This document shows positions 29,154-41,639 of a stretch of 64,000 bases of DNA, piece after piece; position 1 is the first letter of the stretch, and each line of letters opens with the position of its first letter. The notes under the pieces were generated by a model. The model had not been told where the DNA came from, did no database searches, and saw only the letters and a list, made by a program, of their open reading frames with translations. A program made the translations under genes and the position numbers. The DNA is from an uncultured Bacteroidales bacterium. GTDB lineage: Bacteria > Bacteroidota > Bacteroidia > Bacteroidales > FEN-979. The DNA lies in contig CAIVAT010000034.1 in the NCBI GenBank assembly GCA_903903985.1, positions 62,001-126,000 of the forward strand, read 5' to 3'.

Positions 29154-29182
29154 AAACGTGACGCGTGACACGTGACGCGTGA

Positions 29183-40276: not shown

Positions 40277-40306
40277 ATGATTAAAGCTAAATGAATGAGT
40301 CCAACC

Positions 40307-40357
40307 ACCTCAACCCCGTCCCCTTCTCCTTCAGGAGAAAGGGTGCAGGGGATGAGG
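40307..40357. repeat. Intergenic palindromic repeat, copy 2
   Basis: acctcaaccccgtccccttctccttcaggagaaagggtgcaggggatgagg, same architecture as 28162-28235. Confidence 0.7.
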
Positions 40358-40376
40358 CAATCAAAATCAACAATCA

Positions 40377-41639
40377 TCAACTGATCACATTCACCTCCAT
40401 TTCCAGGGTGATCCCGAATTTCCGGTAAACAGAATCCATGATCTGGTTTGCAAGTCCGACGATTTGCAGGCCGGTGGCGTTGCCATAATTAACAAGCACC
40501 AGCGGCTGGTTGGGATGAACGCCGGCATCTCCCGTACGGTAACCTTTCCATCCGCACTGTTCGATGAGCCATGCTGCAGGGATTTTTGCATAAGCAGTTT
40601 TCACTGCCCCTTCACTGATGGTATGGGCTGCAGGGCGGGAAGCTTTTTCAGCCAGGTAATCATTGTCAGGTGCCAGGGGGTAAAAAGGTATGGCCGGAAA
40701 ACGATCCTGAAGTGAAATAAAATGTTCGTGGCAGATCAGCGGGTTTTTAAAAAAACTGCCGGCATTGCCAATTTCAGCCGGATCGGGCAGCTTCCGGCGC
40801 CGGATGTTGCAAACAGCTTCTCGCACATCGCTGATTGTTGGAACACTGACCCCAAGGTATTCCAACTCGGGCCGGATATCGCCGTAATCAAGTTTAAGCA
40901 AAGATAACCCTGTGACGCTTTCACTCTGCGACTCTGCGGCTCTGTCACCTTGTAACCCTGTTACCCTGTTACCTTGTAACCCTGTTACCCTGTTACCTTG
41001 TAACCCTGTTACCCTGTTACCTTGTAACCCTGTTACCCTGTTCCCTTGCAATTCCGATATCTTATCCAACCTGAACGTTACATTCAGAATGATGACTTTC
41101 CCCTTCAGATCTCTTTTAAAAATGCTGTCACGATAGCCAAACTGGCATTCTTCCGTAGTAAACCGTTTTTGTTTTCCCGAATTGATCTCCACCACCTGAA
41201 CCGATTCGATGACATCCTTCACCTCCACGCCATAAGCGCCGATATTCTGAATTGGCGCCGCACCAACGGTGCCGGGGATCAGGGACAGATTCTCCAGGCC
41301 CGCCCATCCGCGGCTTACACAATACTGAACAAATTCGTCCCAGGTTTCACCTGCTTCTGCCGTGACAAGTACCTGGTTTTCATTTTCCTCCCTGATGACA
41401 ATCCCCTTTGAATTGATCCTGATGACAATTCCTGAAAAATCTCCGGTAAAAATCACATTGCTGCCCCCGCCCAGGAAAAGGATGGGCATGTGGATCATGT
41501 GCCGGTAGTTGAGCAGCGTCAGAACCTCTGAATGGGTTTTTGCTTCAACGAAATAGCGTGCTTCCGCTTCCATTCCGAAGGTATGAAAAGGTTTCAGGGA
41601 AACTTTCTGGTCGAGATGCATGGTGTTGCAAAATACCAA
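40377..41639 (-). CDS. murB: UDP-N-acetylmuramate dehydrogenase with an internal low-complexity insertion
   Basis: FHTFGMEAEARYFVEA, LGGGSNVIFTGDF, IPGTVGAAPIQNIGAYGVEVKDVI, RRRKLPDPAEIGNAGSFFKNP, AAWLIEQCGWKGYRTGDAGVH. Confidence 0.93.
   Translation of the reverse strand: MVFCNTMHLDQKVSLKPFHTFGMEAEARYFVEAKTHSEVLTLLNYRHMIHMPILFLGGGSNVIFTGDFSGIVIRINSKGIVIREENENQVLVTAEAGETWDEFVQYCVSRGWAGLENLSLIPGTVGAAPIQNIGAYGVEVKDVIESVQVVEINSGKQKRFTTEECQFGYRDSIFKRDLKGKVIILNVTFRLDKISELQGNRVTGLQGNRVTGLQGNRVTGLQGNRVTGLQGDRAAESQSESVTGLSLLKLDYGDIRPELEYLGVSVPTISDVREAVCNIRRRKLPDPAEIGNAGSFFKNPLICHEHFISLQDRFPAIPFYPLAPDNDYLAEKASRPAAHTISEGAVKTAYAKIPAAWLIEQCGWKGYRTGDAGVHPNQPLVLVNYGNATGLQIVGLANQIMDSVYRKFGITLEMEVNVIS
40906..41049 (-). 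repeat. Period-8 tandem array inside murB (18 units of 8 nt; 24-nt higher-order unit encoding LQGNRVTG)
   Basis: aaccctgt gacgcttt cactctgc gactctgc ggctctgt caccttgt, then four 24-nt blocks [aaccctgt taccctgt (taccttgt)], the last ending tcccttgc (+ strand), with no phase break. Confidence 0.95.

What the first reader, a model, noticed from the sequence alone, without database searches (positions are those of the whole stretch)
40906..41049. Uninterrupted 8-nt array inside the essential gene murB, kept in frame through a 24-nt higher-order unit
Eighteen consecutive 8-nt units run without a phase break inside murB. The core is a 24-nt (3 x 8) unit encoding LQGNRVTG. Gain or loss of one 8-nt unit would shift the frame of an essential cell-wall gene, so only multiples of three are tolerated, which may explain the 24-nt block structure. 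The insertion lies between ...VTFRLDK and LLKLDYGDIRPEL, where ordinary MurB proteins appear to have only a short linker. The array resembles intergenic repeat DNA that has entered a coding region.
Basis: partly seen in the sequence, partly recalled or inferred. Interest (0 to 1): 0.66.

Follow-up and report, generated by a model that had tools for sequence, protein, structure and literature searches.

The report
Octamer repeat array inside murB gene
In an uncultured lake bacterium, an 8-letter DNA repeat that is scattered at the edges of dozens of genes also sits inside the essential cell-wall gene murB, where every third copy carries a variant letter that removes a stop codon, so the gene still reads through and gains a floppy loop.

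Summary
An array of CTGTNACC octamers lies in phase at 40906-41049, inside a full-length type I murB (minus strand). It adds a predicted disordered loop of about 50 residues just before the conserved tyrosine aligned with E. coli Tyr190.

The array belongs to a family dispersed over the genome: 57 BLAST places, control pattern 0. Eight of 19 genomes of the genus carry it, but only 4 of 396 sampled across the phylum. Most arrays lie at gene borders, with the 5' end of the G-rich strand (GGGTNACA) against the nearer gene (40 of 46) and inverted pairs always convergent (10 of 10). GGGNATC repeats of Xanthomonas and Nostoc follow the same placement rule.

The 24-nt unit is explained by stop codons as well as by frame. 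On the G strand a uniform array has TAA or TGA in every frame. In murB, every third unit carries GTAACC (TTA) or another stop-free variant. Of 46 arrays of six or more units, only two have an open G-strand frame: murB and an MFS transporter gene, the two coding ones. Both loops hold unrelated octamer families in sister species.

Best reading: slippage-grown repeat DNA tolerated in permissive loops after filtering for frame and stops. No function for the peptide is shown.

The parts
40377..41639 (-). murB ORF, 420 codons from the TTG at 41639; likely start ATG at 41621 (414 aa)
   Evidence: predicted model matches P. aeruginosa MurB 4jb1, TM (target) 0.95
40906..41049 (+). Array of 18 in-phase octamers, consensus CTGTNACC on the + strand (GGGTNACA-type G-rich strand is the murB sense strand)
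40954..41049 (-). Core of four 24-nt units TTGTAACC-CTGTTACC-CTGTTACC, read on the minus strand as LQGNRVTG x4
40906..40945 (+). Diverged proximal units (CTGTGACG, CTTTCACT, CTGCGACT, CTGCGGCT)
40905..41045 (-). Codons of the model's low-confidence loop, residues 193-239 of the 414-aa protein (pLDDT below 50)
40884..40886 (-). Codon of the invariant Tyr (Y246), aligned with Tyr190 of E. coli MurB; ends the LLKLDY segment right after the insertion
   Evidence: Tyr190 loop of type I MurB described in PMC4408115

Best explanation
The array is a coding copy of a genome-wide family of non-autonomous octamer microsatellites (CTGTNACC / GGGTNACA) that expand by slippage or unequal exchange. An in-frame unit encoding LQGDRVTG became established in the loop before the catalytic-site tyrosine of MurB in an ancestor within this genus. 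It then expanded in some species (here 4-5 x 24 nt, in G003 3 x 24 nt) and decayed or was replaced by other octamers elsewhere. The G-rich strand is the sense strand and a uniform G-strand array has a stop in every frame, so only blocks that are a multiple of three units and carry a stop-free variant at every third position (usually GTAACC, codon TTA) survive. The result is an extra, probably unstructured loop that is tolerated rather than used. Shown: family, placement, stop-slot pattern, variability of the loop between species, predicted disorder. Inferred: slippage as the mechanism, purifying selection as the filter, neutrality of the peptide.
For: Genome-wide family: 157 exact 14-mers against 0 in the control, 57 BLAST places, 65 array calls including a few short chance ones. 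Only murB and an MFS transporter have an array well inside a gene (the one other ORF around an array, at a contig end, looks spurious). All six stop-critical slots in murB are stop-free, and all three in the MFS gene. Of 46 arrays of at least six units, the only two with an open G-strand frame are these two. A search for stop-free bases three units apart gives, at 0 mismatches, only murB and the MFS gene in G000 and only murB in G003. Outside the genus the linker is 7 residues; inside it is 9-58 residues, with clean arrays (G000, G003), short or decayed forms (G018, G002, G004, G009) and unrelated octamers, CCACCCGT-type in G013 and AACTTACC in G016. The MFS loop behaves likewise: GGCGGACA and CACATCAG octamers in G014, GCACATCA in G004, GGTCACAG in G013. 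The loop is the main low-confidence segment of the model.
Against: Copy-number change was not observed directly; there are no reads or strains. The MurB tree is weakly supported, so one gain versus several cannot be decided. The stop-slot units were copied together in 24-nt blocks, so they are not independent events. Coding arrays are open by definition, so part of the 2-of-2 contrast is built in. Both coding arrays lie in the stop-prone orientation although the other strand is usually open, which pure tolerance does not explain; with two cases this may be chance.
Confidence: 0.75

Rival explanations
1. The loop is a functional, selected part of MurB in this genus (for example a regulatory or interaction loop near the Tyr190 substrate-binding loop), and the repeat is the way it evolves length.
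For: It lies directly before the conserved Tyr. Every species of the genus examined except G012 has a linker longer than the family's 7 residues (9 in G012, 13 or more elsewhere).
Against: Sequence and length are not conserved between species, and unrelated octamers give unrelated peptides. The segment has pLDDT below 50. The same octamer peptide occurs in an unrelated MFS transporter loop.
Confidence: 0.12
2. The array is a nucleic-acid element acting at DNA or RNA level (G-quadruplex or protein-binding site) that happens to lie in murB, for example to pause or terminate transcription.
For: Family arrays follow a strict strand and position rule at gene ends; 37 of 59 arrays of four or more units carry a G3N1-7 quadruplex motif. 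GGGNATC repeats with the same placement form quadruplexes in vitro (PMC4692102).
Against: The murB and MFS arrays themselves lack the G3N1-7 motif, because every third unit has GG instead of GGG. A terminator inside an essential gene would be harmful.
Confidence: 0.08
3. Assembly or binning artefact: a wrong copy number or chimeric join in a short-read MAG.
For: Contigs C8, C13, C62, C94, C96 and C125 start or end in such arrays, so the repeats do break this assembly.
Against: Both flanks are one murB with continuous frame on a 204 kb contig. An independent genome has the same array type at the same codons. Exact copy number stays unverified.
Confidence: 0.03

Closest known systems
GGGNATC quadruplex-forming heptamer repeats of Xanthomonas and Nostoc (Rehm et al. 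2015, PMC4692102)
   Same: Dispersed, mostly intergenic short tandem arrays of 2-26 units with a G-rich strand; G strand sense within 50 bp after a stop codon or antisense upstream of an ORF; nearer to the 5' neighbouring ORF whatever its direction; convergent inverted pairs; no leading or lagging strand bias; few in genes.
   Different: Unit is an 8-mer GGGTNACA, not a 7-mer GGGNATC; only part of the arrays have four intact G-tracts; found in a Bacteroidales genus; two long in-frame copies inside conserved genes, with stop codons avoided.
TAACTGA direct repeats of Beggiatoaceae, Cyanobacteria and some Bacteroidetes (MacGregor 2015, PMC4679880)
   Same: Heptamer arrays, mostly intergenic, containing stop codons in all frames on one strand and therefore overlapping ORF ends in that orientation; patchy taxonomic spread; near presumably essential genes.
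   Different: Different unit and length; repeats there sit mainly just upstream of start codons; internal coding arrays are rare and peripheral.
Rickettsia palindromic elements inserted in frame in conserved genes (Ogata et al. 2000, as reviewed in PMC2229807)
   Same: Repeat DNA shared by intergenic sites and conserved protein genes, kept in frame and tolerated by the protein.
   Different: RPEs are 105-146 bp single palindromic elements, not tandem octamers; here the same loops carry unrelated octamers in different species.

Membership tests
MurB, type I (UDP-N-acetylenolpyruvoylglucosamine reductase) | MurB FAD-binding and C-terminal domains | tested here: met
   Pfam PF01565 5.4e-25 and PF02873 5.9e-30; structure match 4jb1, E 1.7e-39
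MurB, type I (UDP-N-acetylenolpyruvoylglucosamine reductase) | Tyr190 loop segment present (absent in type II) | tested here: met
   Invariant Y246 in the position of E. coli Tyr190; definition from PMC4408115 and PMC10058398
MurB, type I (UDP-N-acetylenolpyruvoylglucosamine reductase) | Enzyme activity with the insertion | not testable with these tools
   Needs purified protein
GGGNATC-type G4 repeats (Rehm et al.) | Heptamer unit GGGNATC | tested here: not met
   Unit is CTGTNACC / GGGTNACA, 8 nt
GGGNATC-type G4 repeats (Rehm et al.) | Genome-wide, mostly intergenic arrays | tested here: met
   57 BLAST places; two of the family's arrays lie well inside genes
GGGNATC-type G4 repeats (Rehm et al.) | 5' end of the G strand next to the nearer ORF | tested here: met
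   40 of 46 arrays, median 9.5 nt against 70.5 nt, p 3e-7; within 15 nt of a stop codon 22 of 24 are G-sense (gene calls by longest ORF)
GGGNATC-type G4 repeats (Rehm et al.) | Inverted pairs always convergent | tested here: met
   10 convergent, 0 divergent, p 0.002
GGGNATC-type G4 repeats (Rehm et al.) | Quadruplex-forming capacity (four G-tracts) | tested here: inconclusive
Rickettsia palindromic element-like insertion | Single palindromic element of about 100-150 bp with terminal inverted repeats | tested here: not met
   Direct tandem octamers; upstream and downstream flanks of the arrays show no shared sequence
Phase-variable contingency repeat | Unit change switches the frame of the gene on and off | not tested
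   Frame is kept in every MurB of the genus recovered, but no population data were available

The most novel reading that the evidence does not exclude
The arrays are laid down by an active, orientation-specific process that extends the G-rich strand from gene borders into intergenic DNA, as in telomere-type repeat addition at broken ends followed by joining. That would explain the convergent pairs and the abutting 5' ends in Bacteroidales, Xanthomonas and Nostoc alike; murB and the MFS gene would be rare coding hits of it.
Probability: 0.05. Interest if true: 0.85.

Novelty: new variant of a known kind. Interest (0 to 1): 0.45.

Why it matters
It links intergenic repeat DNA to the evolution of an essential enzyme's loop with a readable signature: stop-free third units mark the coding arrays among dozens of non-coding ones, so the filter that selection places on repeat growth can be read directly. 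The same strand and position rule in an unrelated phylum, with a different unit length, suggests that placement follows a general rule and is not a property of one sequence. Two conserved proteins used as landing sites by unrelated octamers give a natural test of which loops tolerate new sequence.

Tried and rejected
Telomerase-like or DRT10-like reverse transcriptase as the source (DRT10: PMC12632851, seen in search results only): G000 has a single RVT_1 match, which looks like a group II intron protein by its sequence (my reading); G012 has arrays and no match; G015 and G016 have many RTs and no array hits; no octamer lies beside any RT locus fetched. RAYT/Y1 transposase: G008, the richest in arrays, has none. 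Replication-strand bias: no difference in flanking GC skew between array orientations, p 0.96. A shared flanking core or MITE ends: none seen by eye in the flanks. A general period-8 generator: the genus is rich in 7-nt and 8-nt arrays alike, so 8 is not unique. A bare 24-nt period as proof of coding constraint: rejected, since intergenic arrays show it too.

Full report
Observation. Window 40906-41049 holds 18 in-phase octamers. TRF reports the same array as period 24, 97% matches, and as period 8. The unit is CTGTNACC on the + strand, GGGTNACA-like on the minus strand. The array lies within an ORF of 420 codons on the minus strand (40377-41639) that is MurB by Pfam and by PDB sequence match. 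The first four or five units are diverged; the remaining core of about 13 units is clean and encodes LQGNRVTG four times. The exact 14-mer GTTACCCTGTTACC occurs 157 times in the 5.2 Mb genome and its reversed control never.

Where it sits in the protein. The alignment to crystal structures breaks at residue 193 and resumes at 247 with P. aeruginosa MurB, which has two residues there. By position, the E. coli residue matching the conserved Tyr of LLKLDYGD is Tyr190, the residue of the Tyr190 loop that defines type I MurB (PMC4408115, PMC10058398). AlphaFold2 on 26 MurBs gives a confident MurB fold (match 4jb1, target TM 0.95). One long stretch, residues 193-239, falls below pLDDT 50; it corresponds to DNA 40905-41045, almost exactly the array. 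A second short low-confidence stretch is 330-339.

Relatives. The 19 genomes of the genus are uncultured Bacteroidales MAGs, several from lakes. Outside the genus the linker is 7 residues. Inside it is 58 in the window genome, 34 in G003 (an independent assembly with three LQGDRVT units), 20 in G018, and decayed LQGDK or LQGHK forms in G002 and G004. G013 has a CCACCCGT-type octamer array there and G016 an AACTTACC one. The gene tree without the linker is too weakly supported to count gains and losses.

The family in its own genome. BLAST with an array gives 57 places. I fetched 40 stretches and listed the arrays. With simple longest-ORF gene calls, only two are well inside genes: murB and an MFS transporter gene at G000:C18:162200-162263; one further ORF around an array at a contig end looks spurious. 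The rest sit at gene borders. For arrays with genes on both sides, the 5' end of the G-rich strand is the nearer side in 40 of 46 (p 3e-7; median 9.5 against 70.5 nt). Neighbouring arrays of opposite strand are convergent in 10 of 10 cases. Within 15 nt of a stop codon, 22 of 24 arrays have the G strand as sense; several supply the stop codon themselves. This is the placement that Rehm et al. reported for GGGNATC repeats in Xanthomonas and Nostoc, convergent inverted pairs included (PMC4692102). The unit differs. 37 of 59 arrays carry a G3N1-7 quadruplex motif; the two coding arrays do not.

Why the unit is 24 nt. Read on the G strand, GGTNACAG repeats place the codon TNA in every frame once per 24 nt: TAA for the common T unit, TGA for the common C unit. 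In 477 intergenic units the fifth base is T 322, C 139, A 11, G 5. In murB all six critical slots are TTA, TCG or TTG; in the MFS gene the three are TTA, TTA, TCA. Of 46 arrays with at least six units, exactly two have an open G-strand frame, and they are these two. A pattern search across the genus for stop-free bases three units apart returns, with no mismatch, only murB and the MFS gene in G000 and only murB in G003. G018 has one intergenic match in a mixed array, and G013 has intergenic matches because its own family, GGTCACAG, is stop-free everywhere. So frame plus stop avoidance explains the block. A 24-nt period by itself does not, since intergenic arrays show 2-, 3- and 4-unit periods as well. 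Two cautions: coding arrays must be open by definition, and the critical units were copied in blocks, so the counts are not independent events.

A second landing site. The MFS loop varies in the same way: LQGDRVTG units in G000 and a remnant in G008, GGTCACAG-type in G013, GGCGGACA followed by CACATCAG octamers in G014, GCACATCA octamers in G004, and short non-repetitive loops in others. Two conserved proteins thus each receive several unrelated octamers at one loop. This points to loop permissiveness rather than to a property of one repeat. The genus as a whole is rich in both 7-nt and 8-nt arrays.

Mechanism. The most likely account is growth by slippage or unequal exchange of a low-complexity seed, with purifying selection removing, within genes, every change that shifts the frame or restores a stop. 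What lays down the strand and position rule at gene borders is unknown here and in the published cases. I tested whether reverse transcriptases or Y1 transposases track the arrays across the genus; they do not. Replication strand, judged by flanking GC skew, does not matter either.

Limits. All genomes are MAGs, G000 at 87% completeness. Gene calls are ORF-based. Array copy numbers in short-read assemblies may be off. No population data were available, and no function of the peptide was tested.

Noticed in passing
L066:3625-4884 (G000:C18:161625-162884): MFS transporter gene with a second in-frame octamer array; the same loop carries other octamers in G014, G004 and G013.
   Followed up: yes
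L227 (G004:C140): The MFS gene copy runs into a GCACATCA octamer array where the fetched stretch ends; another piece of the gene lies on contig C233, so the array probably broke the assembly.
   Followed up: partly
window 40300-40360 and L240 13142-13252: A palindromic stretch like TCCTTCAGGAGAAGGGG just downstream of murB; a 34-nt tandem unit with the same core occurs elsewhere in the genome.
   Followed up: no
L254 9511-9565, L260 15916-16407, window 29156-29182: GTGACGC/GTGACGG heptamer-type arrays with higher-order 14-, 28-, 35- and 42-nt units, a second large repeat family of the genus.
   Followed up: no
G274 (another family of the same class): One genome of a different family carries the same octamer array (17 matches), a sign of patchy spread or independent origin.
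   Followed up: no
L182 1030-2481 (G000:C42): The only RVT_1 match in the window's genome; by sequence it looks like a group II intron reverse transcriptase (not scanned against family libraries).
   Followed up: partly
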